This document shows, piece by piece, positions 5,729-52,415 of a stretch of 64,000 bases of DNA; the first letter of the stretch is position 1, and each line of letters begins with the position of its first letter. The stretch comes from Candidatus Altarchaeota archaeon. GTDB lineage: Archaea > Altiarchaeota > Altiarchaeia > IMC4 > QMZM01. The notes under the pieces are model-generated. The model searched no databases. It saw only the letters and a list, made by a program, of their open reading frames with translations, and was not told the origin of the DNA. The translations under genes were made by a program, and so were the position numbers. The stretch lies in NCBI GenBank assembly GCA_016931955.1, contig JAFGDV010000012.1, positions 50,255 to 114,254 of the forward strand, given 5' to 3'.

Positions 5729-8700
5729 ATGCACGAAAATAAAAATAATTTAAAACAAGAGAACATGCGAAAAACACTCTACTTGATAATAGGCATACTA
5801 ATAACAGTCAGCCTAGCTAACGCACAATGTGGATATTCTGGAACAGGAGACTGGATTATAGATTCTAAGATTGATTGCAAGGACACATCGATTACATTAA
5901 ACGGAAACATACTCATCAACACAGGAGGCTGGCTTAACGCAACCAATGTGTTTTTCACATTCAACAACACTGGTAAAGCCAACGAAACAACAAGAGGCAC
6001 GGCACTTGAAGACGGAGGCAACCTGACTCTTGTGGACTGCCTTTATCAAAGCAACGAACCAGTTGGTGGAACGGATATTGAAGACAACCCAGGCGGTTGG
6101 ACTAACACATGGATCAATGTATGGAATGATGTTGGAAATGCAGACTGTAGGATAATATTGAATAGAACAACCTTCAATGGCATAGGGATGCATCCCTTGA
6201 ACATATTAAATAGTCGCTATGGCATCTACCCTATGGAGGGGCAGATGTGGGTGGACAACTGCACATGCAATAAATCAGTTAACTGTTTCATTTCTACAGC
6301 AGATAGCACAAGAGGGGATAATAGAACAATTCGCTACTTGAAAAACAACAAATTTGAGAACATAAGCACATTCCCCTATGTCTTCCTCTATGATGGAGAC
6401 AGTGAAACAGAATACTTGGAAATAACAGGAAACACCTGGTATGGTAACACATACCGTATGGGGACACTTGATTACACTGAGAAAGTTAAGATATACGACA
6501 ACACCGCAAGCGGCACACCCAACTATGGTTTCAGCAACAACGGAGCAAGTGATGTCTTGATATACAACATGAACATTTCAGGACCGCCAACAGCAGTAGA
6601 GTTAAATTCAGGAAACCATGACTTTGAGATATACAATCTGAATATAACAAACGGCGGAATAGGCTGCAACTACGGCAACCGCAACATAACAATACATGAT
6701 GTAGACGTCACAGGTAAGAAAGCATTTGTAGGAAGCACCGCAGTCGCAGGAAGCCCAAACTACAACAACCACTTCTACAACATGACATACACATTTGTTT
6801 TCGGGGCAGACATAGTAGGCTACCTGATAGCCTACACAGGAGAAAACTCAACAATAGAGGACATCACAATAGTTGGGTCTCCCACAGACCAGACAGCGAT
6901 AACCACAAAACACGCCACAGGAGGGACTGGGGGAAGCGAATACTATGTTAAAAACGTCACATATGAGGACATAAGCATAGACAACATCAACACAGGCATC
7001 CGGATGAAATACTTCAACGACAGCACATTCAGAGACATCAGGATGACCAATGTGAACAGCTACAACATCTACTTCTCAGGGAACAACTACCGAAACAGAT
7101 TCATCAACGTCACACACGACAGCGTTTTCTTCGACAACAACGACGACGTATTCGACTACTACAATTATCTTTCGGTGAATGTGACCGGTGACAACGTGTG
7201 GGGGATAGAAGTGTATAATAGGACTAGCGATTTGTTAACGAGCGGATCCACGACGACGGGGAAAGTCGAGAAACTAGAAGTCAACGAATTCAAGCAGACC
7301 AAGGTGGCGACAAATTTACAGTATCCGCACACGATCAAGGTAACAGGATTGGTGGCGGACACGGACTACAACGTCACAGTAAACGGAGCATACAGTCAAA
7401 CAAAAAAGACAGACGCACTGGGAGTACTGACATTCCAAGAGAATATAACAGACAACACACGGATGACACTGAAGGCGACAACAGACGTATACCCGCCATT
7501 CATCACGATCATTACACCACAGAACACAAAATACGCGCAAGGAGCGCTGACGGCGGAGATCAGCTTAGACGAAGACGGAGACTGGTGCGCATACTCACTA
7601 GAAGGAAACCCCAACAAAACAATGACAGGAGCAGGAAAAAGCTGGACAACACTGCTCACAGAACTCGCGAAGATAGAGTACAGCATAAAGTTCTGGTGCA
7701 ATGACACACAAGGACACATGGGGTCATCCGAGAAACGATATTTTACGATAGTAGAATGCCTGGCAGACGGAGACTGCGGCATAGGACAATACTGCAACAC
7801 AGGAGATGAGTGCAAAGACAAAAAAGGAGACGGAGCACCATGCAGTGCAGATAAGGAGTGCACGTCAAATGAATGCTGCCATTCAATATGTAGAAGTGTG
7901 TGCCCCTACTGCGGAGACGGATACTGCGACGGAGGAGAAACATGCGGAACATGCCCGCTAGACTGCACCTGCGCACCCGGAGGCGGACCAGGAGGAGGAA
8001 CAGGAGGATCCGGAGGAGCCATCGGGACAGGAGGAATAGGGGCGAACTGCTTCGACGGGATAATGAACCAGGGAGAAACCGGAATAGACTGCGGAGGACC
8101 CTGCAAGGCATGTCCTAGTTGCATGGACGGGATACTGAACCAAGGCGAGACCGGAGTAGACTGCGGAGGACCCTGCGGAGAATGCGCCATCGGAGCGACA
8201 GCGGCAAGCTGCTATGACAGAATAAAGAACCAGGGAGAACAAGGAATAGACTGCGGAGGACCCTGCAAGGCATGCAAGACAGGGAACATATTACAGGAGA
8301 AATTCATGATAGGGTTAAATCATCCCAGTGAAGTGGAAGCAGGAGACCACTACACAGTAGGAGTGACAGTAGAGAATACAGGAGACACCACACTAAAAGA
8401 ACTGAACGTGAAAGTAGGCAGCCAGATAAAGACAACCGACTTAGATCTGACAGAGAAAAAGACAGTGGAATTCCAACTAACCGCGCCACGAGAAGAAGGA
8501 GAATACATGATAAAAGTAGAAGCATACAATGGAACCCTAAGAGAAGAAGAACAAACAAAGATACAAGTAAAGCCAACCCCGCTGACGCTGAGAGCCACAA
8601 CAGTAGACAACACAACATATATTATAACGCAGACCAATTACACCGACGCAGTGATAGAATTAATAATCACAAGAGAAAACAAAACAGTATACTGGGACTA

Positions 8701-10787: not shown

Positions 10788-10834
10788 TGCAATATTTATG
10801 CATAAATATTGCAATAGACTGCAATATTTAAATA
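10788..10834 (+). promoter_or_regulatory. 26-bp perfect palindrome, half-site and TATA box of AAA gene 2
   Basis: Positions 10788-10813 form a perfect palindrome (left arm TGCAATATTTATG, right arm its exact complement). A further half-site TGCAATATTTA (10820-10830) runs into the TATA box ATATTTAAATA (10824-10834), which is about 28 bp before the ATG at 10855. This looks like an operator array over the promoter. A mutated copy of the same array is found at 16380-16440. Confidence 0.72.
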
Positions 10835-10854
10835 CAACAACCACTATATATAAC

Positions 10855-12180
10855 ATGGACAAAAACACCCTCAGAGCAACAATAATATCACAAAAAAAAG
10901 AAACAAAAAAAATACTAAAACAAGAAAAAATCATAGAAAGAGAACTACAAAAAGAAACAGAAAAACAACTAAAAAACAACCTCATCAAGATCACCACAGG
11001 CGTCAGAAGATGCGGAAAATCAACCCTCGCCCTACAAACACTCCAAGACAAAGAACACGCCTACATCAACTTCGACGACGAAAGACTCTACAAGATCACG
11101 ACAAAAGACCTCGACACAATCCTAGAAACACTATATGAAGTATACGGAAACTTCAAATACCTCCTCCTAGACGAAATACAGAACATACCTGGATGGGAGC
11201 TATACGCAAACAGACTACAAAGACAAGGCCTCAACCTCATAGTAACCGGAAGCAACGCAAAACTACTAAGCAAAGAACTTGCAACACACCTAACAGGAAG
11301 ACACATCACACTTGAACTATACCCCTTCTCCTTCAGAGAATACCTAAGCTACCACAAAATCAGCCCCCAAAAAGAAGACCTACAAATCGCAGAAGGCATC
11401 GGAAAAATCAAAAAACACCTAAGAGACTACATAGAAAAAGGCGGATTCCCCGAAACATACAAAATCAAAGACAACACAAGATACCTAAAAGACCTCTACA
11501 ACTCCATCATAAACCAAGACATCATAAGCAGATACAACATAAAATACGCAAACACGCTAAGAGAGATAATCTCCTACACCATCTCAAACTACGCAAGCCC
11601 AATAACCTACAAAAAAATAAAAAACATATTCGACATAAAAAGCCAACACACAATAAAAAACTACCTCTACTACGCAGAAGAATCATACCTGATAACCCAG
11701 AGCCTACAATACACACACAAAATAAAAGAACAAACACGACTGCCCAAAAAAATCTACGCCATAGACACAGGCCTCATAAAAGCAATAGGATTCAAGGCAT
11801 CAGAAAACACCGGCAGACTAATGGAAAACCTCATCGCAATAGAACTACAGAGAAAAAAAACACAAAACCCCCTCCTAGAAATATACCACTGGAGAGACTA
11901 CCAAAAAAGAGAAGTCGACTTCGCAGTCAAAGAAGGCCTAAAAGTAAAGGAACTAATCCAGGCATGCTACGACATCGAAGACCCAAAAACAAAGGAGAGG
12001 GAAGAAAAAGCATTGATAAAAGCCGGGAAAGAACTCAGATGCAAAAACCTCAAAATAATAACCTGGGACCACGAAGAAACAGGGAGAATAGAGTATATCC
12101 CACTATGGAAGTGGCTGCTGCAGCCGACGGGTTTTGTCCCGGCGACTGAGGAGAATGTAGTGCCTAACCCAACAAATTAG
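10855..12180 (+). CDS. AAA ATPase with DUF4143 C-terminal domain (AAA gene 2)
   Basis: A 441-residue member of the AAA_14/DUF4143 family. The open frame begins at 10798 inside the palindrome, but the ATG at 10855 has a TATA box 28 bp upstream and is chosen. Walker A is GVRRCGKST, Walker B YLLLDEIQN, followed by VTGSNAKLL, and the C-terminal domain has REVDF. The E-x-K position is replaced (ELIQACYD), as in the QV/QA subgroup. Other members end WKWLLE and stop; here the frame runs from WKWLL into QPTGFVPATEENVVPNPTN, encoded by a hairpin plus the GTAGTGCCTAAC repeat, so the natural end seems to have been replaced by a repeat insertion. Function unknown. Confidence 0.85.
   Translation: MDKNTLRATIISQKKETKKILKQEKIIERELQKETEKQLKNNLIKITTGVRRCGKSTLALQTLQDKEHAYINFDDERLYKITTKDLDTILETLYEVYGNFKYLLLDEIQNIPGWELYANRLQRQGLNLIVTGSNAKLLSKELATHLTGRHITLELYPFSFREYLSYHKISPQKEDLQIAEGIGKIKKHLRDYIEKGGFPETYKIKDNTRYLKDLYNSIINQDIISRYNIKYANTLREIISYTISNYASPITYKKIKNIFDIKSQHTIKNYLYYAEESYLITQSLQYTHKIKEQTRLPKKIYAIDTGLIKAIGFKASENTGRLMENLIAIELQRKKTQNPLLEIYHWRDYQKREVDFAVKEGLKVKELIQACYDIEDPKTKEREEKALIKAGKELRCKNLKIITWDHEETGRIEYIPLWKWLLQPTGFVPATEENVVPNPTN
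12121..12179 (+). repeat. Hairpin plus GTAGTGCCTAAC repeat at the 3' end of AAA gene 2
   Basis: The constant tail GTAGTGCCTAAC (12157-12168), found five more times in the window, follows an imperfect GC-rich hairpin (12123-12145). GTGCCTAA also pairs with TTAGGCAC (12160-12179). The element replaces the expected stop after WKWLL and adds 19 codons. Confidence 0.6.
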
Positions 12181-28843: not shown

Positions 28844-29761
28844 TCAATAGACAATCCTAGAGGATTCAACCGATTCAGGCTTCACGGTTATCTGTTTAGG
28901 GGATACAAGACTCCGCCAGAGAAGGATCTCAGAAAACAGGCGGACTGGGAGGATCAGGAGATAGGAGATGGCTGGGCCGACGATGAATGCCAGACAGCAG
29001 GTGAAAAATGCCAGGACTGCAAGCACCAAGCTGATGAGGAGCCATATAAGATGGAAGACGAAGACCTTACCGGCATTGTTCTTGACTATCTCCACCGAAT
29101 TCCTGACGGCATCCATAAGGCCCCTATTCGATAAAACAAGTTCGATGCGGACGAAGGTGAATAGCAGGACAAGGACCGTCTCTATTAGGACCACGATAAA
29201 GACACCGACGACGAAGACCAACAGACCCTGCATGATGTTGTCCATAAATACGCGTAACTGCTCCTCTGAGGCTGAAGAGAGCACAGACGCCGTCCCGGGG
29301 ACCCAGAGCAAAAAAAACAACAATATAGGCAGGATGGTGATGATGCCAACAAAAAGCTCGAAGAAGAAGAGCTTCACCGCATTGGAAAACTGAGTCCCTA
29401 GATGGGAGGTCCACTCAGAAACATTCTTCTTCGATGCGGTCTCCTCCAGGGGCTTTATGACTGACAACGTTATGAGGATGACGACGATGCTAGAAAGCCA
29501 GCCCAACGCCGTCCTGACGAAGAAGGAAGGCTTCGTGTACTCGCAGACCATCAGGGATACTAGTGAGGAGAGGAAATCAGCCCCCGAGGGTGTGAACTCG
29601 CATGGCCGCTCCACGAGGTTGAATGCGAAATTCAGGCCCATCGACAGTATGGAAACGAGGAAGATGAAGACAAACAACGCAATAAAGGCAGACAAGACCC
29701 TGTTATAGTTCTCCTTGTAGAGGTTGTATCCTGATTTTATGGCATCGGTTACATCATCCAT
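28844..29761 (-). CDS. Polytopic membrane protein, first gene of the C1 operon
   Basis: An integral membrane protein of about 305 residues with six or so hydrophobic helices in three pairs (residues about 24-48, 80-102, 130-160, 178-210, 240-280), resembling DUF975/GDPD-membrane-domain type proteins, with the repeated motif SVEIVKNN. The frame extends to 29809, but the ATG at 29761 has a - strand TATA box 27 bp upstream and avoids overlap with the divergent gene. Function unknown. Confidence 0.72.
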   Translation of the reverse strand: MDDVTDAIKSGYNLYKENYNRVLSAFIALFVFIFLVSILSMGLNFAFNLVERPCEFTPSGADFLSSLVSLMVCEYTKPSFFVRTALGWLSSIVVILITLSVIKPLEETASKKNVSEWTSHLGTQFSNAVKLFFFELFVGIITILPILLFFLLWVPGTASVLSSASEEQLRVFMDNIMQGLLVFVVGVFIVVLIETVLVLLFTFVRIELVLSNRGLMDAVRNSVEIVKNNAGKVFVFHLIWLLISLVLAVLAFFTCCLAFIVGPAISYLLILPVRLFSEILLWRSLVSPKQITVKPESVESSRIVY

Positions 29762-29779
29762 GTAACTTAATTGTAGACT

Positions 29780-29791
29780 GGAATATAAATA
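29780..29791 (-). promoter_or_regulatory. TATA box of the C1 operon
   Basis: On the - strand TATTTATATTCC (29791-29780) is centred about 26 bp before the ATG at 29761, the spacing of a leaderless archaeal promoter. The divergent + gene starts only 31 nt away. Confidence 0.55.
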
Positions 29792-29792
29792 C

Positions 29793-30956
29793 ATGGACGA
29801 GATAGGCATTGTGGGGATAAACTCGAGGGCGGCGGCAGACAGCGCCCGAAGTCTTGGATTAAAGGTTTATCTGGTAGACTACTTCGACGACGTGGACGTC
29901 AAAGCGGAGAGACGTTATTCACTGCAGAGCGAGCCATTAAAGCCCAACCTCGAGGTAGAGTACACCTCAGACAAGCTGGTGGACGCAGCCATAGAAAAAC
30001 TCGGGGGAGAAGTCAGTTCACTGATAACGACTTCAGACATAGGCTGCAATCCAAGGCTCATAGAAAAACTCGAAAAACACTTCACTGTTCTTGGGAACAA
30101 CTCAGGGCAGGTGAAGAAGGCAAAAAACTGGAGGACGCTGAAGAAGGCCCTGGACGAGGAGGGTATAAGGCATCCGAAGACGGAGACCGCAAGATCTACC
30201 AGAGAAATAGAAAAAAAACTGGGAGAGATTAAGACGCCTGCGGTGGTCAAGGGTGTGGGGATTCAGCCGAGGCTCATAAGGGGTCTGGAAGACATGGAAG
30301 GGCTTAAAGACCTCAGGATAGAGGATGAGGCCCTGATCCAGGAATACATCAAGGGGGTGGAGGTAAGCGCATCGGTCATGGCCGACGCCGAAAAAACGAC
30401 GACGCTCTCAGTTAACAGACAACTGGTGGGGATAGACTGGTTATTCGCCAAAGAGATGGCATACTGCGGGAACATCGTGCCACTGGATTCAATGTATGAC
30501 GAAAAAATAGCGGAAAAATCAGCAGGGATAATAGATAGACTAGGGTTGATAGGTTCGAATGGAGTCGACTACATAATATCAGAGGATGGACTGTACTTCA
30601 TGGAAGTGAACACCAGACTCCAGGACACACTTGAATGCGTCGAAAAATACAGGGGAATAAACATGGTAAGAGAACACCTGAAGGCCTTGGAGGGAAACAC
30701 TGACATACATGGAAAGGCTGGAGGATGCTATGGTAAAGGGATACTGTATGCGAGGGAAAGGCTGAGGGTCGAGGATCTAAGGAGGATAGACGGGGTGAAG
30801 GACATACCACAGAAAGATTCAACCATCAGGATAAACGAGCCCGTATGCAGCATCTACGCCTCGGGGAACACACACGACGAAGTATTGGAAAAACTCAGGG
30901 AGAAAGCCAATCTTTTAGACAAACACTACAAAATAGTTACAGGATGGGGATACTAG
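29793..30956 (+). CDS. ATP-grasp ligase-like protein (COG2232 type)
   Basis: A 387-residue ATP-grasp protein: a pre-ATP-grasp domain (residues 1-95, IGIVGINSRAAADSARSLGL), a central ATP-binding part (VKGVGIQPRLIRGL, LIQEYIKGVEVSASVMAD) and the metal-binding EVNTRLQDTLE near residue 270. Such enzymes join a carboxylate to an amine or thiol using ATP; the COG2232 group is archaeal and mostly uncharacterised. The sufC start lies inside its last codons, so it is probably co-transcribed with sufCB. Confidence 0.82.
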   Translation: MDEIGIVGINSRAAADSARSLGLKVYLVDYFDDVDVKAERRYSLQSEPLKPNLEVEYTSDKLVDAAIEKLGGEVSSLITTSDIGCNPRLIEKLEKHFTVLGNNSGQVKKAKNWRTLKKALDEEGIRHPKTETARSTREIEKKLGEIKTPAVVKGVGIQPRLIRGLEDMEGLKDLRIEDEALIQEYIKGVEVSASVMADAEKTTTLSVNRQLVGIDWLFAKEMAYCGNIVPLDSMYDEKIAEKSAGIIDRLGLIGSNGVDYIISEDGLYFMEVNTRLQDTLECVEKYRGINMVREHLKALEGNTDIHGKAGGCYGKGILYARERLRVEDLRRIDGVKDIPQKDSTIRINEPVCSIYASGNTHDEVLEKLREKANLLDKHYKIVTGWGY

Positions 30957-31678
30957 AAACAAGGAATCTGGGCATAGAATTCAATGGGAAAAAGATACTG
31001 GATGACGTGAACATCGACCTATGGGAGGGACACGTGCATGCAATAGTAGGCCCCAACGGCGCGGGGAAGTCAACGCTGGCTTACACGATAATGGGGCTTG
31101 GAGGATACAGGAACATCTCAGGGGATATCCTATTCCAGGGAGAGTCGATAAAGGATCTCAGAATAGATGAGAGGGCTAGGAGGGGTATGACGCTCGGATG
31201 GCAGGAGCCCGCCCGCTACGAAGGGCTCTCAATAGAAAAATTCGTCACCGCCGCGGTAGAAGACAAAAGCCACAAAAAGATCAGGGAGGTATTGGGGAAG
31301 GCGGGGTTGAACCCGAACCTCTACCTCAAGAGGGCGGTAGACAGAACCCTGAGCGGAGGCGAGAGGAAGAAGATAGAATTGGCATCGATTCTTGCTTTGA
31401 AACCGAAGCTTGTGATGCTGGACGAACCGGACTCTGGGATAGACGTGGCCTCCCTCAGAAACATATTTGATGCCATAAAGCTACTGAAGGAAAACGGGTC
31501 AACCGTTGTATTGATCACGCACAGCCTGGAGGTATTGAATCAGGCAGAACACGCATTCCTTATGTGTTGTGGAAAGATAGTGGAGCAAGGCAAAATCGAG
31601 AAGATACGGAAATACTTCGAGAAAAAATGCATACCCTGCACCCACGAGAACATACCAGATCTGAACGGTGGAGCCTAG
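30944..31678 (+). CDS. sufC: Fe-S cluster assembly ATPase SufC
   Basis: A 244-residue ABC-type ATPase that drives Fe-S cluster assembly with SufB. The ATG at 30944 (MGILETRNLGIEF) is chosen although the frame is open further upstream; it overlaps the ATP-grasp gene by 13 nt. Walker A GPNGAGKST, Q-loop LGWQEP, signature LSGGERKK, Walker B LVMLDEPDSGID and the H-loop ITHS are all present. Next to sufB, it forms the minimal SufBC system typical of archaea. Confidence 0.93.
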   Translation: MGILETRNLGIEFNGKKILDDVNIDLWEGHVHAIVGPNGAGKSTLAYTIMGLGGYRNISGDILFQGESIKDLRIDERARRGMTLGWQEPARYEGLSIEKFVTAAVEDKSHKKIREVLGKAGLNPNLYLKRAVDRTLSGGERKKIELASILALKPKLVMLDEPDSGIDVASLRNIFDAIKLLKENGSTVVLITHSLEVLNQAEHAFLMCCGKIVEQGKIEKIRKYFEKKCIPCTHENIPDLNGGA

Positions 31679-31679
31679 A

Positions 31680-32603
31680 ATGGATGGTGTAGAGGAACTA
31701 TATAGGCTGAGTAAGCTGGACAAGGCCTTAGAGGACCCAAATGTAGGGCACATAGTGATCAATCTGAATAAGATACTCGATAAAAGGCTTATCCCCGGCC
31801 TGGAGATAGATGCACGAGAGCTTGAGGACGGGATCGATGCAAGGATCACGGTCAGAGAAGGCACGGTGATAGAAAAACCCGTGCACCTATGTTTTGGGGT
31901 GACGCATGAAAAAGCAGTCCAGAGGATAAAAACTGAGGTGGAGATACAGGAGAATGCTGAGGTATTGTTTCTGGCACACTGCATCTTTCCCAACGCAGTT
32001 GATGTGACGCATATAATGGATGCGAGGATAACAGTAGGAGAGAACGCGAAATACACCTACCTGGAGAAGCACATACACGGAGAATACGGGGGGACAAAGG
32101 TCTACCCCAAAGCCAGGGTCGAGCTCGGGAAAAACTCAAGATTCAAGACCGAATTCGAGCTATTAAGTGGGAGGGTTGGGCTGATAGAGATAGACTATGA
32201 GACAGTCTGCAGGGAAGAGAGCGTGATGGAGATGACCTCCAAGGTAAGTGGGAGAGGCAACGACATAATAAGGATAAGTGAGGTAGGGCACCTGGTGGGG
32301 GAGCATGCGAGGGGTGTGCTGACCTCCAGGGTGGCGGTAAGGGAGAACGCGAAGGCCGAAGTCCACAATAAACTGAATGCCACAGCAGCCTACGCCAGAG
32401 GCCACGTAGACTGCAAGGAGATCATACAGGACAACGGGATAGCGACCGCTATACCAATAGTGCAGGTAAGCCACCCCAAGGCGCACATAACACACGAGGC
32501 ATCGATAGGGAGCGTGGACACTAAACAGTTGGAGACATTGATGGCAAGGGGCCTCACAGAAGACGAAGCAGTTGAGCTTATAATAGAGGGCCTGTTAAGC
32601 TGA
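31680..32603 (+). CDS. sufB: Fe-S cluster assembly scaffold SufB/SufD
   Basis: A SufBD-family scaffold of about 307 residues, shorter than bacterial SufB (about 470) but normal for the archaeal SufBC pair. The C-terminal beta-helix core is visible (VSGRGNDIIRISEVGHLVGE, ARGHVDCKEIIQDNGIATAI, HPKAHITHEASIGSVD and the helical end MARGLTEDEAVELI). The ATG at 31680 lies 1 nt after the sufC stop; a GTG at 31668 is an alternative. It assembles clusters for the many Fe-S proteins, such as CdhE. Confidence 0.92.
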   Translation: MDGVEELYRLSKLDKALEDPNVGHIVINLNKILDKRLIPGLEIDARELEDGIDARITVREGTVIEKPVHLCFGVTHEKAVQRIKTEVEIQENAEVLFLAHCIFPNAVDVTHIMDARITVGENAKYTYLEKHIHGEYGGTKVYPKARVELGKNSRFKTEFELLSGRVGLIEIDYETVCREESVMEMTSKVSGRGNDIIRISEVGHLVGEHARGVLTSRVAVRENAKAEVHNKLNATAAYARGHVDCKEIIQDNGIATAIPIVQVSHPKAHITHEASIGSVDTKQLETLMARGLTEDEAVELIIEGLLS

Positions 32604-32614
32604 AGAGATCCTGA

Positions 32615-33673
32615 TCAGAGCATGTCCAGCAGGTGAGAGGGTAGCTGTAAGAGGAATCTTGCAGTGAATGTTGGACTGCAGAATAATGAGTGGACTGTTT
32701 TTGAGGCGGAATCCATGTCGCCTCCGTTCTCCAAGAGTTGCTTATGTTCTGATATTAGGGAGAATAAGCGATCCTTGCTATTGTCCGAAAGCCTGGAGAG
32801 GAGGTTATGGATCCAAAGATGAAGGCGAAGCTCCCAGCCGATAGCTGACCTCCAACTGCGCTCATAATCTGGGAGACTGGAAAAACCTGCTGCGATACCG
32901 CCCATGACGATACCCCCACCAGAGGAAGCCTTCACCTGACCTGCGGCATCGCCCACGGTAATGATCCTCCCATAGTCCGTCCTCAGATTGGGCTCATGGA
33001 GGGGTATGACACCATAATTCCGGGCTAATATCCTAGGATCCCTTACCCTGCCAGCCGCAGAAAGCCCCTTCAGGAAGCGGTCCAGGTGAGGGGTTGGATT
33101 CAGCATAGAACAGCAGCCTACGCGAGCATAATCCCTGACAGGAATGACCCATGAAAAAAAACCAGGTACATTGAAGTGCAGTTCCACAACGTCTGGATCA
33201 GATTCCACCTCCAATTCATACTGCACCCCCACGAGGAACCTAGTGGGCTTATCCAAGCCAAGTCTATGCTGGATTTGGTAGTTTGTGCCAGTAGCCAGAA
33301 CCACCCTGTCAGCTTCTATGCTATTGAGATCCCTCACGCCCTCGTTCACGAGAACTGCGCCGGCATCTACTGCCGAATCCAAGAGGAAGCGGTCGAACTT
33401 TCTTCTGTCCAAGACGTAGGCCTTTATCTCTCTACCATCCACGAGAAAGGACTCACCTGAAGGGGAGAAGATCCGGGCAGATGACACGCCGTTGAGTATG
33501 AAATCCTTACTAGGGGATATGTTAAGCCGCTGAAGACCAGACTTGCTCACCAAACCGGCACACTGTACTGGCTGAGTCAGATGCTCCTCGTAGATCTCAA
33601 CACTATGCTCTCTAACACAGCTTAAGGCTGCGAGGCTGCCAGCAGGCCCGCCTCCGATAACAGAGATTTTCAT
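32615..33673 (-). CDS. Geranylgeranyl reductase family flavoprotein
   Basis: A 352-residue FAD-dependent reductase of the digeranylgeranylglycerophospholipid reductase family, which saturates archaeal membrane lipid chains. N-terminal FAD fold ISVIGGGPAGSLAAL, QCAGLVSKSGLQRL (the conserved CAG), VLDRRKFDRFLL and the second FAD motif TVGDAAGQVKASSGGGI are present. Its ATG overlaps the purA stop by 1 nt. It converges with sufB (11 nt). Confidence 0.9.
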   Translation of the reverse strand: MKISVIGGGPAGSLAALSCVREHSVEIYEEHLTQPVQCAGLVSKSGLQRLNISPSKDFILNGVSSARIFSPSGESFLVDGREIKAYVLDRRKFDRFLLDSAVDAGAVLVNEGVRDLNSIEADRVVLATGTNYQIQHRLGLDKPTRFLVGVQYELEVESDPDVVELHFNVPGFFSWVIPVRDYARVGCCSMLNPTPHLDRFLKGLSAAGRVRDPRILARNYGVIPLHEPNLRTDYGRIITVGDAAGQVKASSGGGIVMGGIAAGFSSLPDYERSWRSAIGWELRLHLWIHNLLSRLSDNSKDRLFSLISEHKQLLENGGDMDSASKTVHSLFCSPTFTARFLLQLPSHLLDML

Positions 33674-34752
33674 TATACCCTGAGGTCGACTATGTCTCCA
33701 GGATTCGGTCCAGTAGAGATGAGGGTGGCTTTTATACCTACTCCATCTTCGATCCCCCTCACATAATCCCTCGCCCTATGGGATAGTTTATGGTATTCTC
33801 TCACGCCATTACATTCAGGGAAGATCTTGTCCAAACAGGTGATGCCGATCTGTGTGGCTCCGTTGACCATTGCAGAATACTTTGCTAGTTCAAGATCGAA
33901 GTCGCCTATGCGTCTCTGTCTCTGGGTCACTGTCCCCTTCTCCCCCAGGTACTTCGCAAGGACATCATTCACGGAAGATCCCTTGATGCCCTTCTTCTCA
34001 GCCGCCCCCAAGACCTCCTGCCAGAGGGGGTATTGGGATATGTTTTCTTCAGTTATCAGGGTATTTTGGGGGCCTTCGCCGACGCGAGTAGTATACGCCT
34101 TATAGATCACAAGCACGTCGTCTACCTTCGTCGGCCCGATGCCTACGTCGACTGCGGCCATGCCCGCTGAGGTGTCCTTTGACGTGACATAGGGGTAGGT
34201 TCCATAGAATAGGGAAAGCCCGAAGCCCTGACTAGCTTCCACGAGAACCTCCTTACCTGAATCAATAGCTGAATTAACCTCCAACGGCACATCAGCCAGG
34301 TACTCCCTCAGTTCGGGAAAGTCCCTGGCAAGCTTTATCGTGCGGTGAGCGCGTTCAGCATTAGCCGGACCGCAGCCGCTCCCTGTGGTGCCGACCTTTG
34401 TGTGCAGGAATTTGTCTCCAGCATCCTCCTCTTTGTGTCTCTGTTCTATGACCGCGCATCTGCTGTCGACGAAGATCCTGCCTTCAGTACCGGTCATCTT
34501 GACCTCCTCCTGGAACCTCTTAGGGTCGACGAGGACGCCGGCTCCTACCAGGAGCCTTGAGGCCTCATTAACGAAGCCGCATGGTATCATCCTCAGACCG
34601 TATTCCCTTCCCTCCCAGTAGACGGTGTGCCCCGCATTCGGTCCAACACCCGCCCGCGCGATTATGTCGGGTCTATCCTTCAAAGCCAGATAGGATATGA
34701 TCTTGCCCTTGCCTTCGTCGCCGAAGTGTCCACCGACAACAATGGTGGTCAT
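33673..34752 (-). CDS. purA: Adenylosuccinate synthetase
   Basis: A 359-residue PurA, which joins IMP and aspartate using GTP in AMP synthesis. Archaeal PurA is shorter than the bacterial form (about 430), as here. Catalytic GHFGDEGKGK (Asp 12), GPNAGHTVYW (catalytic His), the IMP/GTP loops KVGTTGSGCGPA and ASQGFGLSLFYGTYPYVTSK and the CLDK guanine motif are all visible. It overlaps the cupin gene by 4 nt. Confidence 0.95.
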   Translation of the reverse strand: MTTIVVGGHFGDEGKGKIISYLALKDRPDIIARAGVGPNAGHTVYWEGREYGLRMIPCGFVNEASRLLVGAGVLVDPKRFQEEVKMTGTEGRIFVDSRCAVIEQRHKEEDAGDKFLHTKVGTTGSGCGPANAERAHRTIKLARDFPELREYLADVPLEVNSAIDSGKEVLVEASQGFGLSLFYGTYPYVTSKDTSAGMAAVDVGIGPTKVDDVLVIYKAYTTRVGEGPQNTLITEENISQYPLWQEVLGAAEKKGIKGSSVNDVLAKYLGEKGTVTQRQRRIGDFDLELAKYSAMVNGATQIGITCLDKIFPECNGVREYHKLSHRARDYVRGIEDGVGIKATLISTGPNPGDIVDLRV

Positions 34753-41404: not shown

Positions 41405-41773
41405 GGGAGACTATGTATTGCTGCTAAGCGATTTGGTCGAGCTTTTCTAAAGCTCGAGGGTGAACCTTTAGCAAAGGTTGCTGGCGGATGGATCGGTAAC
41501 AGGTGAATCTGCGGAAGCAGATTCCATTCTTTTTCGCCAATGTTTTCCGTCAAAACTGCTGTAGCAGTTTTGGGCGCCAAAATCGGAGATTTTGAGTGTC
41601 TTTCTAGGAAAAAGGTTGCTGGTAGTGCCTAACTGGGAGAGTATATCAATATATTTATATATCAATATAGTTTCATATAACTACATTTACATACTGAAGT
41701 AGAACTATGATAGCATACTAGCATATCCACATATCAACATAATTCTATATGACCATATCTGCATGTCAAGGGT
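41405..41773. repeat. Hairpin array with GTAGTGCCTAAC tail downstream of rdgB
   Basis: No gene. Five clear stem-loops follow each other: GAGCTTT-TCT-AAAGCTC (41440-41456), AACCTTT-AGC-AAAGGTT (41463-41479), GAATCTGC-GGAA-GCAGATTC, CAAAACTGCT-GT-AGCAGTTTTG and CAAAATC-GGA-GATTTTG. The constant tail GTAGTGCCTAAC is at 41622-41633. After it comes an AT-rich stretch with repeated ATATCAA/CATATC words up to the next gene. An orphan rdgB end lies at 41489-41506. Confidence 0.75.
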
Positions 41774-49222: not shown

Positions 49223-50941
49223 ATGGGACCTGACTTTGAAGTGAGGGATAAAGACGTCGGCGGGAGGATTGGGAAGCTCAACATAGATAATAAGACCGTT
49301 GAAACGCCGTTGCTGATGCCGGTATACAATCCAAACAAGCCCCTGATAAGCATAGAAGAACTGAGGGATAGATTCAACCTAAAGGCCTTGATGACTAATT
49401 CCTACCTTATGTTGAAGGATGACACCCTCAGGGAGAAGGTGCTCGCGGAGGGCGTCCACAAGTACCTGAACTTCGATGGTTTAATAGCAACTGATTCAGG
49501 CTCATTTCAGCTGATGTCGTATGGGAGCGTTTCCACGACGAATAGGGGGATAATAGAGTTCCAGGAAAGGATCGGCTCAGACATAGGCTCCTTCCTCGAT
49601 ATACCCTCGCTGCCAGATTCTTATAAGCCCCGGGCGGCTGAGGAATTAGATACCTCCTTGGAGAGGGCTAAGGAAGCATTGAACGCAAAGTTTGTCGTCA
49701 ACGCCGGCATTCAGGGTTCAACGCACCTCGACCTCAGGAAGAAGGCTGCCTTAGGAATCGGGGGAAACTTCAGGCTGTGCGCCGTTGGTGGCATCGTCAG
49801 GTTGATGGAGGATTACCGTTTCTCTGACCTCGTGGATATCATCGCAACGGTGAAAGAGAATCTGCCTTCAGATAGGATTGTTCACGCCTTCGGCTTAGGT
49901 CATCCTATGGTTTTTTCTCTCGCTGCCGCCCTCGGATGCGACCTTTTTGATTCCGCTGCCTACGCCCTCTACGCCCAAGATGGTAGGTATATGACTGAGG
50001 CTGGGACGAAGAGGCTGGACAACTTGGATTATCTGCCGTGCTCCTGTCCAATCTGCAGTAAGTATGGTATGGAACTAAGGGAGTTAGAGGAGGGGGAACG
50101 GATTAAAAACCTGGCCTTACATAATCTCTACATCAGCTTTGAGGAATTGAACAGGGTCAAGCAGGCTATCAGGGAGGGTAGTCTCTGGGAGCTGTTGTCC
50201 ATGCGCACCAGATCACATCCAGGGCTTTTTTCAGCCCTCAGTAGGTTATCTGACCATAGTGGATGGCTTTCCAGGCTCGACCCCATCACAAAGAAGACAC
50301 CATTCTATTACACGGGAAGGGAATCCAGGTACAGATCCGAGGTCGTGAATGCGCGTAAAAGGATGAAGAGGGTTTCATCCGTTAACAGGATAAGACTTCA
50401 GCCCTTTGGCAGAGTGCCTGTTGAAGTCTTGGACGTCTACCCCTTCGGGAGCTTCAGTTCGCCTGAGGGTGTGGTCAGAGAGGATCCACCTTTTAGCGTT
50501 AGAGACATCGAGAAGTTACGAGCCATTATGGAGTACCAGTTCGGCAGTGGTGCCTCAGACCTTATAGAGGATGGCTTCAGGATAAAGAAGTCCAGGAAGA
50601 CTGGGAGGATCAGATGGATTTATAGGAAAAAAGAACTTGTCGCCTCAGTGCGCGCATCGGATCACATGATAATACCCAAACAGTATCTTGCGGAAAAACT
50701 CAGGGAGAGATTCAAGTACCCGAAGCTTAGGGTTGTCATTGATGATGAAGCTGTTCCCTTTGTCTCCGAGGGGAAGAGCGTCTTCGCCAGATTCGTTGTA
50801 TGGGTGGATCCTGATTTGAGGGCTAATGACGAGGTCTTAGTAGTTGATCGAAAGGACGAGCTTATCAGGACCGGTACATTGGTTCTCGCACCTAAGGAGG
50901 CTATTGATTTTAGTAGGGGTGTTGCCGTCAGGGTCAGATGA
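49223..50941 (+). CDS. tgtA: Archaeosine tRNA-guanine transglycosylase
   Basis: A 572-residue full-length arcTGT that swaps guanine-15 of tRNA for preQ0, the first step to archaeosine. The catalytic barrel has ATDSGSFQLMSYG (Asp 91), AFGLGHPMVFSLAA and FDSAAYALYAQDGRYMTEAG; the zinc site is LPCSCPICSKYG with a later His. C-terminal domains end in a PUA RNA-binding fold (about residues 495-572, KSVFARFVVWVDPDLRANDE). The gene converges on its neighbour with an 8-nt overlap. Confidence 0.94.
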   Translation: MGPDFEVRDKDVGGRIGKLNIDNKTVETPLLMPVYNPNKPLISIEELRDRFNLKALMTNSYLMLKDDTLREKVLAEGVHKYLNFDGLIATDSGSFQLMSYGSVSTTNRGIIEFQERIGSDIGSFLDIPSLPDSYKPRAAEELDTSLERAKEALNAKFVVNAGIQGSTHLDLRKKAALGIGGNFRLCAVGGIVRLMEDYRFSDLVDIIATVKENLPSDRIVHAFGLGHPMVFSLAAALGCDLFDSAAYALYAQDGRYMTEAGTKRLDNLDYLPCSCPICSKYGMELRELEEGERIKNLALHNLYISFEELNRVKQAIREGSLWELLSMRTRSHPGLFSALSRLSDHSGWLSRLDPITKKTPFYYTGRESRYRSEVVNARKRMKRVSSVNRIRLQPFGRVPVEVLDVYPFGSFSSPEGVVREDPPFSVRDIEKLRAIMEYQFGSGASDLIEDGFRIKKSRKTGRIRWIYRKKELVASVRASDHMIIPKQYLAEKLRERFKYPKLRVVIDDEAVPFVSEGKSVFARFVVWVDPDLRANDEVLVVDRKDELIRTGTLVLAPKEAIDFSRGVAVRVR

Positions 50942-51752
50942 ACTGGAGGGGAAAATAGATTTCATACCGCTCCTGTCTGCTTTTTTCTTCTCCTTGCAGG
51001 TAGTTGCATAGGTAGTATGGTAGGTAGACTATTCCGTCAAAGACTGCCTCAGCTAGGAAAAGTTTCCCAAGGAGCTCGGATACCTCCCCACTTGAGTGCT
51101 CGACTGGGTCTTTTGGGTATGTTGTGTGTTGTACTTCATCTACTTTTAGAAGGGATTCCAGGTCATAGGCTTTGTCTTCAATCTTTGGCACATGTATCTT
51201 TGACCGTACATAGTAGTTCTCTTCAGGGTAACCGTAGCCCCTGGATGCGACCTCTGCTATTCCCATGACGCTGTCGGTTTTTGATGAATAGGCTTCAATG
51301 AGGCCTCTCTGCATTAGTAGTACCATGTTCTTTTCATCCAGTTGATTTTGGAGTTGCTCGTATCTGACGCTCCCGAATTCAATAAGATCCAGCAGGAGAT
51401 CGCTTGCTTCCTCTGGCAGATCTTTGAGTACTATGAGGATGTCTGAATGCTCGACAGCTGGTTTAGAAAGCAACGCTTTTTTGACGTAGAAGAGCTCTAA
51501 ATGGGCTAGGTCGGCGTAGACTGTGTTTTGTTTCTCTTCGTGGGCTTGCTTCCTGAATACTGCCCCCTTTTTTTTCTTTTCTTCTCTAAAAACGTTGAAT
51601 CTGCCAAGTGGTATGTATCTCTTCTCTATCTGATCGATTCTTTCCTCTGAACCTAGGAACAGGATCTTCTTTTTTCTCTTGGATTCGAAATATCTCTTGG
51701 CTTCTTCAGAGTTTTCTGTGAGAGCGAATGCTTTCTCAGCCGAGTCATCCAT
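50934..51752 (-). CDS. Uncharacterised archaeal protein
   Basis: A 272-residue soluble protein with no recognised family. Visible: a charged N-terminal helical part (EAKRYFESKRKKKILFLGSE), RIDQIEKRYIPLGRFNVFRE, a central helical region (EEASDLLLDLIEFGSVRYEQ, LQNQLDEKNMVLLMQRGLIE) that could be a winged helix, and a C-terminal alpha region. It lies tail to tail with tgtA. Confidence 0.65.
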   Translation of the reverse strand: MDDSAEKAFALTENSEEAKRYFESKRKKKILFLGSEERIDQIEKRYIPLGRFNVFREEKKKKGAVFRKQAHEEKQNTVYADLAHLELFYVKKALLSKPAVEHSDILIVLKDLPEEASDLLLDLIEFGSVRYEQLQNQLDEKNMVLLMQRGLIEAYSSKTDSVMGIAEVASRGYGYPEENYYVRSKIHVPKIEDKAYDLESLLKVDEVQHTTYPKDPVEHSSGEVSELLGKLFLAEAVFDGIVYLPYYLCNYLQGEEKSRQERYEIYFPLQFI

Positions 51753-52244
51753 GGTTATCTCTTATGTGCGAGTGCGTATAAATCCAATGGAAAAAATTGC
51801 TGATATTTTGAGATGGCGAGATATTGTAGTGCCTAACTGAGATGGTGTTGATACACAAAAAATCCATTGTGTGTTATCGAGCGCGGCGAAGATAACACCT
51901 TTGATCAACCTTTAGCAAAGGTTCCTGTAGTGCCTAACTATCAATCCTAGATGTATGGTATCAACATACCAATATACCAACATGTTTTTGTATTGCCATA
52001 TCAATATGTTATTCTTAGATACGTCTATGGTGCGGCTAAGCGTAAGCGCATGCCGCACATTTGATCAACCTTTAGCAAAGGTTGTTATAGTGCCTAACGC
52101 GAGGATATGCAAACGTATCAAATGACAAAGTACCCACGTCTATGGATTGTCGAAACTTGCTTTGCAAGTTTCCTTTGGGATGATAACCCTTTTCTAAAGG
52201 GTTATCTGTAGTGCCTAATATATCTTTGTGTGTAATACTATACA
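51753..52244. repeat. Cluster of hairpin repeats with four GTAGTGCCTAAC tails
   Basis: No gene in 490 nt. The tail occurs at 51826-51837, 51927-51938, 52087-52098 (first base A) and 52208-52219 (last base T). Before the tails stand hairpins: ACACAA ... TTGTGT, GTTATC ... GATAAC, AACCTTT-AGC-AAAGGTT (twice, each inside an identical 24-nt unit at 51900-51923 and 52060-52083), TGCGGC ... GCCGCA, GAAACTTGC-TTT-GCAAGTTTC and AACCCTTT-TCT-AAAGGGTT. Stems differ in sequence but keep pairing. Confidence 0.8.
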
Positions 52245-52415
52245 ATGTCCTACATTCGAACCAAGAGGATTAAGGGTGGGATCTATTATTACCTGGTGAA
52301 GTCTGTTAGGGAGGGTAGGAGGGTTTATCAGGTTAATCTCGCATATATTGGTGCTGTGAAGCCCAGCAAGGAGGCGGTCAGGAAACTGAAGAAGAAGTAT
52401 GATAGGGCTACTTGA
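52245..52415 (+). CDS. 56-residue basic protein, transposase N-terminus-like
   Basis: A short frame reading MSYIRTKRIKGGIYYYLVKS, then VREGRRVYQ and IGAVKPSKEAVRKLKKKYDR. It resembles the N-terminal segment of IS1634/IS4-type transposases (YIRTKKIKG-x-YYYLVES), which also occurs as small free-standing archaeal proteins. A TATA-like TAATATATC (52216-52224) lies about 28 bp before the ATG and directly joins the last GTAGTGCCTAA repeat. Its end overlaps the convergent PurM-like gene by 8 nt. Confidence 0.65.
   Translation: MSYIRTKRIKGGIYYYLVKSVREGRRVYQVNLAYIGAVKPSKEAVRKLKKKYDRAT

What the first reader, a model, noticed from the sequence alone, without database searches (positions are those of the whole stretch)
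51753..52244. Undescribed hairpin repeat family with constant tail GTAGTGCCTAAC
Four tails within 400 nt, all on the + strand, each next to variable but strongly paired stem-loops. Stem sequences differ while pairing is kept (AACCTTT/AAAGGTT, AACCCTTT/AAAGGGTT, GAAACTTGC/GCAAGTTTC), which points to selection on structure. Not terminators (no T run) and not CRISPR (no equal spacing). It could be a structured RNA, a protein binding array or a miniature mobile element.
Basis: seen in the sequence. Interest (0 to 1): 0.75.

Follow-up and report, generated by a model that had tools for sequence, protein, structure and literature searches.

The report
Conserved 13-letter DNA site in Altiarchaeota
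The repeated 'tail' is a 13-letter, one-directional DNA sequence that an order of uncultured archaea keeps at the edges of certain genes, that sits in front of the gene for a tiny protein which probably binds it, and that one tailed virus carries 19 times, so it looks more like a chromosome-wide stop sign for gene reading than a hairpin family.

Summary
The genome is an Altiarchaeota MAG. The motif occurs 20 times in 1.55 Mb (reversed control 0) and 3-34 times in most genomes of two related families, but not in a sister family or most other archaea. It lies in gaps between genes, often supplies stop codons, and is polar: between co-directional genes it reads GTTAGGCACTACA in the transcribed sense in 23 of 27 gaps. 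The window's array ends 25 bp upstream of a 56-aa protein gene. That gene is usually single copy, mostly co-distributed with the motif, and has the motif within 40 bp upstream in 9 of 17 genomes, including one genome whose only copy is there. One 45-kb viral contig has 19 copies, all in one direction. Hairpin modules show compensatory changes and sit between motif copies; one array is absent, exactly at the motif, in a congener. Best explanation: an asymmetric binding site of the small protein, acting as a polar transcription boundary, like mycobacteriophage stoperators. Binding and function are inferred, not shown. Rivals: a site-specific recombination site, or a hairpin mobile element.

The parts
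51825..51837 (+). motif copy 1, TGTAGTGCCTAAC, 72 bp upstream of the divergent minus-strand gene 50934-51752; no hairpin directly before it
51844..51899 (+). long imperfect hairpin GGTGTTGAT...GATAACACC between copies 1 and 2
51907..51923 (+). hairpin AACCTTT-AGC-AAAGGTT
51926..51938 (+). motif copy 2, TGTAGTGCCTAAC
52030..52058 (+). hairpin GTGCGGCTAAGCGTAAGCGCATGCCGCAC; a related hairpin lies before the copy at G000 C28:26210 (L011)
52066..52084 (+). hairpin CAACCTTT-AGC-AAAGGTTG
52086..52098 (+). motif copy 3, TATAGTGCCTAAC
52152..52172 (+). hairpin GAAACTTGC-TTT-GCAAGTTTC
52182..52206 (+). hairpin GATAACCCTTT-TCT-AAAGGGTTATC
52207..52219 (+). motif copy 4, TGTAGTGCCTAAT, 25 bp before the start codon of the small protein; probable operator
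52245..52415 (+). gene of the 56-aa protein MSYIRTKRIKGGIYYYLV..., candidate binder of the motif (predicted three strands and a helix)
12156..12168 (+). lone motif copy, reading V-V-P-N at the 3' end of ORF 10798-12180 (5 codons before its stop codon)
41437..41572 (+). array of perfect hairpins upstream of the copy at 41621
41621..41633 (+). motif copy GGTAGTGCCTAAC in a convergent gap, after a hairpin array

Best explanation
TGTAGTGCCTAAC is an asymmetric 13-bp DNA binding site of a dedicated small DNA-binding protein, most likely the 56-aa protein encoded right beside the array in the window. The protein represses its own gene from the site that sits at the promoter position. At the other sites it marks transcription-unit borders: bound in one orientation, it stops RNA polymerase arriving from the GTTAGG side, so read-through or antisense transcription does not enter the neighbouring unit. 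It would work like the stoperators of phage L5, but be host-encoded. A virus carrying 19 sites in the sense direction would be silenced along its length by the same kind of protein. The hairpin modules are secondary: they accumulate and are lost between site copies. Shown: motif conservation, position, polarity, link to the small-protein gene, viral copies, hairpin covariation, one filled/empty site. Inferred: binding, the identity of the binder, the block to transcription, and what it does for the virus.
For: Motif 20 vs 0 in the genome and conserved through two families. Gap polarity 23 vs 4 in co-directional gaps, 26 convergent vs 6 divergent. The serB-OB unit is bounded by outward copies in 9 of 10 Altiarchaeal loci and in none of 30 other loci. 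The small protein is mostly co-distributed with the motif; motif within 40 bp upstream of its start in 9 of 17 genomes, 0.007 expected; the single copy of G016 is there. In several of these promoters a TATA-like stretch follows the motif directly. AlphaFold2 predicts three strands and a helix at pLDDT 89; integrase arm-type DNA-binding domains are among weak fold matches (Z about 4). Viral contig: 19 of 19 in sense direction, 0 reversed. Analogue: 13-mer asymmetric sites whose orientation correlates with transcription (PMC9283540).
Against: No binding or expression data. Eight of 17 genomes lack a motif at the small-protein gene. G019 and G022 have 10 and 19 core copies but no small-protein hit (both MAGs incomplete). 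Polarity has exceptions: the gap between the same two genes (c5 and c10) has opposite orientations in G000 and G001. Genome neighbours were called by a simple ORF rule, and the same loci recur across related genomes. Fold matches are weak and mixed. The model does not explain why hairpin modules sit between sites. The viral contig encodes no recognisable small-protein homologue and its host is unknown.
Confidence: 0.4

Rival explanations
1. The motif is a site-specific recombination site. An unidentified recombinase joins and cuts at it, so hairpin cassettes are gained and lost as direct-repeat-bounded units and gene units between inverted copies flip. The small protein would be an accessory arm-binding factor.
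For: Filled/empty pair: a 322-bp array in G002 versus a single site in congener G009; the right flank matches only after the last site, 57/68. The serB-OB unit between outward sites lies in opposite orientations among genera and inside one genus, with at least two changes on the tree. Many copies at contig ends. Core GCCTAAC fits the integron RYYYAAC pattern (from memory). In-frame KLGTT junctions join what look like distinct domains in the virus.
Against: No recombinase tracks the motif: tyrosine recombinase hits are scattered and absent from G002, which has the most copies. No paired opposite half-site nearby as an attC needs. Segments between copies range from 4 to 300 nt, and deletion or inversion by homologous recombination between repeats explains the rest. 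Promoter position and polarity are unexplained.
Confidence: 0.22
2. A miniature mobile or REP-like element: hairpin plus tail is the mobile unit, spread by a transposase acting in trans, and lone tails are decayed copies.
For: Hairpin and tail occur together in several genera with covarying stems. Arrays stand next to genes. GTAG-type REPs also often supply TAG stop codons (PMC3733652). One presence/absence pair.
Against: Only 9 of 92 tails have the hairpin. Lone tails are kept at the same serB borders across genera. No Y1 transposase in the genome or most relatives. Copy number is low.
Confidence: 0.15
3. An RNA element: a transcript 3' end, terminator or processing signal read as TGTAGTGCCUAACUUUU or its complement, with hairpins as accessory structure.
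For: T-rich stretch after the motif; copies 2-17 nt after serB stop codons; covarying hairpins.
Against: Copies sit at the promoter position before the small-protein gene and just upstream of TATA-like sequences at the OB gene, where they are probably not transcribed with that unit. Orientation is opposite at the two ends of one unit. No Rfam match.
Confidence: 0.13

Closest known systems
Stoperators of cluster A mycobacteriophages (L5, TipsytheTRex)
   Same: Asymmetric 13-bp site, many copies, one orientation relative to transcription, in short gaps overlapping gene ends; one copy at the promoter of the presumed binder; 19 copies in a 45-kb viral contig (PMC9283540)
   Different: Sites are on a host chromosome across an archaeal order; different sequence; the candidate binder has 56 aa with strands and one helix, not a two-domain HTH repressor; no silencing shown
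GTAG-type REP sequences with RAYT transposases
   Same: Hairpin beside a GTAG-containing end; intergenic; GTAG ends supply TAG stop codons (PMC3733652)
   Different: The conserved part is a 13-bp tail, usually without hairpin; no Y1 transposase in the genome; 20 copies rather than over 100
Integron attC sites and attC arrays without integrase (CALIN)
   Same: GCCTAAC core, direct arrays, cassettes bounded by sites, hairpins
   Different: No paired opposite core, no integron integrase found, most cassettes have no gene; archaeal integrons are described in PMC9668308
Arm-type DNA-binding domains of tyrosine recombinases; N-terminal modules of IS1634 transposases and archaeal Fic-like proteins
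   Same: Three strands plus helix, sequence similarity of the 56-aa protein to IS1634 N-termini and to 295-319 aa archaeal proteins
   Different: Stand-alone protein without any catalytic domain; fold scores are weak

Membership tests
Stoperator system | short asymmetric site in many copies | tested here: met
   13 near-invariant positions over 94 gap sites; 20 copies
Stoperator system | orientation correlates with transcription | tested here: met
   23 vs 4 distinct co-directional gaps; viral contig 19 vs 0; some exceptions
Stoperator system | site at the promoter of the binder's own gene | tested here: inconclusive
   9 of 17 genomes for the candidate gene; binder not proven
Stoperator system | repressor with HTH and stoperator domains | tested here: not met
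   candidate is 56 aa, three strands and a helix
Stoperator system | binding stops transcription elongation in one orientation | not testable with these tools
   needs bench work
GTAG REP / RAYT | palindrome present in each unit | tested here: not met
   9 of 92
GTAG REP / RAYT | REP-associated tyrosine transposase in the genome | tested here: not met
   no PF01797 hit in G000 and in 24 of 29 Altiarchaeota genomes
Integron attC | paired core sites RYYYAAC and GTTRRRY around one hairpin | tested here: not met
   arrays are direct repeats of one core
Integron attC | integron integrase | tested here: inconclusive
   one weak tyrosine recombinase hit in G000, none in G002; MAGs incomplete
CRISPR array | regular spacing and spacers | tested here: not met
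   spacings 101, 160, 121 in the window
Rfam RNA family | score above a family's gathering cut-off | tested here: not met
   no match in the window; only a tRNA in ten other loci

The most novel reading that the evidence does not exclude
Altiarchaea run a host-encoded, chromosome-wide stoperator-like network: one 56-aa protein and a polar 13-bp site insulate selected transcription units, and at least one virus has filled its genome with the same site, so host and virus share one silencing code.
Probability: 0.25. Interest if true: 0.85.

Novelty: new variant of a known kind. Interest (0 to 1): 0.66.

Why it matters
Transcription boundaries and read-through control in archaea are poorly understood, and uncultured lineages offer few handles. 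A polar site with a candidate binder of 56 residues is small enough to test directly in vitro. If a virus shares the site with its host, the site would also be a marker for linking viruses to Altiarchaeota and a case of silencing shared by host and virus. If it is instead a recombination site, it would explain flipping gene units in these genomes.

Tried and rejected
Transcription terminator, CRISPR, Rfam RNA and tRNA. rRNA processing stems, suspected because inverted copies lie 1.5 kb apart: the unit is serB-OB, not rRNA. Transposon ends: longer proteins sharing the small protein's N-terminus are mostly Fic-like, and inverted-repeat searches around them gave only one unrelated chance match, so the idea of a domesticated transposase with relic ends was dropped. 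Recombinase co-distribution: none. Provirus in Altiarchaeota: no terminase homologue in 29 genomes; the control was empty, so this is weak. Host-virus link by shared 18-mers: apart from 13 scattered hits, all shared 18-mers contain the motif. Whether KLGTT is an insertion in viral proteins: no close homologues were found to compare. Viral scan for the motif: the other contigs are about what chance gives for a 15-mer, by my own estimate. Copies inside host genes (26-32): largely chance matches in the open frames LGTT, VRHY and VPN. A solved-structure search by sequence found nothing.

Full report
WHAT IS THERE. The window holds six copies of the core TAGTGCCTAA, all on the + strand: 12158, 41623, 51827, 51928, 52088 and 52209; 0.05 are expected. 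The hairpins between them are real. Across 12 copies from several genomes the stem directly before the tail keeps pairing through changes on both sides in six of ten positions, far above shuffled and slid controls. But in 92 intergenic tails only 9 have such a hairpin; background intergenic windows have it in 3.9%. The tail is the constant element.

DISTRIBUTION. Relatives of the window fetched by name are Candidatus Altiarchaeales / Altiarchaeota MAGs. In the window's own genome the 11-mer TAGTGCCTAAY occurs 20 times and its reversed control never. In families f1 and f5 most genomes have 3 to 34 copies; f7 and f6 of the same class, and other archaea, have about what chance gives. From 94 gap sites the consensus is TG-TAGTGCCTAAC-T followed by a pyrimidine-rich stretch (the core was fixed by the search).

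POSITION AND POLARITY. The copies lie in gaps between genes, often so close that TAG on either strand of the motif is a neighbour's stop codon. Counting each gap once, 26 are convergent, 23 co-directional with GTTAGGCACTACA in the sense direction, 4 co-directional the other way, and 6 divergent. Gaps from related genomes are counted apart, so the p-values of about 0.0003 and 0.0005 are optimistic. The clearest case is the unit of an OB-fold gene and serB, between lonB and nadX: outward-facing copies bound it in 9 of 10 Altiarchaeal loci and in none of 30 serB loci from other organisms. In the tenth (G008) neither lonB nor nadX was found beside the unit. The upstream copies precede TATA-like sequences of the OB gene by about 10-28 bp (read by eye).

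THE SMALL PROTEIN. The array in the window ends 25 bp before a 56-aa ORF at 52245-52415. The protein is conserved (R, K, G, YYY, Q, Y and G invariant in 17 sequences), usually one close copy per genome, in all f1 genomes except G011 and in most f5 genomes. Weaker hits in other archaea are mostly parts of longer proteins. In 9 of 17 genomes a motif lies within 40 bp upstream of its start. Chance would give 0.007, with the caveats that the gene was chosen after the fact and genomes are related. In G016 the only exact copy of the motif in 2.4 Mb is there, though reversed. In several of these promoters TTTTATA or TTTTTAA follows the motif at once, the place of a BRE and TATA box (established archaeal promoter layout). 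AlphaFold2 gives three strands and a helix with pLDDT 89; arm-type DNA-binding domains of integrases appear among weak matches at Z about 4, tied with unrelated proteins. This fits a DNA-binding protein but does not show it.

A VIRUS WITH 19 COPIES. One IMG/VR contig, IMGVR_UViG_3300009320_000030 (45,496 bp), has 19 exact copies on one strand and none on the other. Its main genes, including a terminase-like one, run on the opposite strand, so every copy reads AAAGTTAGGCACTAC in the sense direction. The motif is its most frequent 12-mer. Several copies stand within about 10 nt before a plausible start codon. Those inside open frames always read KLGTT; one of the other two frames holds a stop codon and the third would read VRHY. 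The host of this virus is not known.

DYNAMICS. Between motif copies lie segments of 4 to 300 nt, some tandem units, some hairpin modules. In G002 322 bp of such modules stand where its congener G009 has one motif; flanks align on both sides only if the whole array is left out. The serB unit is inverted between genera and within one genus, with at least two changes on a serB tree. In G009 and G001 both ends carry the same variant letter. Recombination between copies clearly happens; homologous recombination or slippage would suffice.

INTERPRETATION. Polarity, position at unit borders, one copy at the promoter of a co-distributed small protein, and dense one-way copies in a virus are together what stoperators look like: L5-type repressors bind more than twenty asymmetric 13-mers whose orientation correlates with transcription, and reversal abolishes repression (PMC9283540). 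I therefore favour a site for a small DNA-binding protein acting as a polar boundary (0.4 for the whole mechanism; a functional conserved DNA site as such is close to certain). Recombination site (0.22), hairpin mobile element (0.15) and RNA element (0.13) remain possible. It is not filed as a stoperator system, since the repressor architecture is not met and polar silencing was not tested.

Noticed in passing
L269-L271 (viral contig), ORFs ending at 7786, 9136, 11023, 11944, 12896: Five viral ORFs start with variants of MxxxKEAGGNPAGK, encoded by a covarying hairpin such as GCGGGTGGAAATCCCGC just after the start codon: a second repeated element in the same virus.
   Followed up: no
L271, reverse strand of viral contig 29577-33701: A single 1374-aa viral ORF with PAPS reductase and ATP-dependent DNA ligase domains and seven motif copies in frame.
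   Followed up: partly
L050, L058-L062, L067, L097, L099, L101: The OB-fold/serB unit flips in place between convergent lonB and nadX among Altiarchaeal genera.
   Followed up: yes
L324 2811-2969 (G001 C77): A second, divergent copy of the small protein directly behind a 696-aa ORF, perhaps in a mobile element.
   Followed up: no
L315-L321: The small protein's fold module is also the N-terminus of Fic-like archaeal proteins of about 295-319 aa (naming by eye).
   Followed up: partly
L305 10020-10063: Another viral contig has the motif, a near copy TAGTGGGTAAC and TAGTGCCTAAA in one intergenic stretch.
   Followed up: no
L018, L089, L160: The motif also lies inside trpC at the same place (LGTT) in G000, G020 and G001, possibly only protein conservation.
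   Followed up: partly
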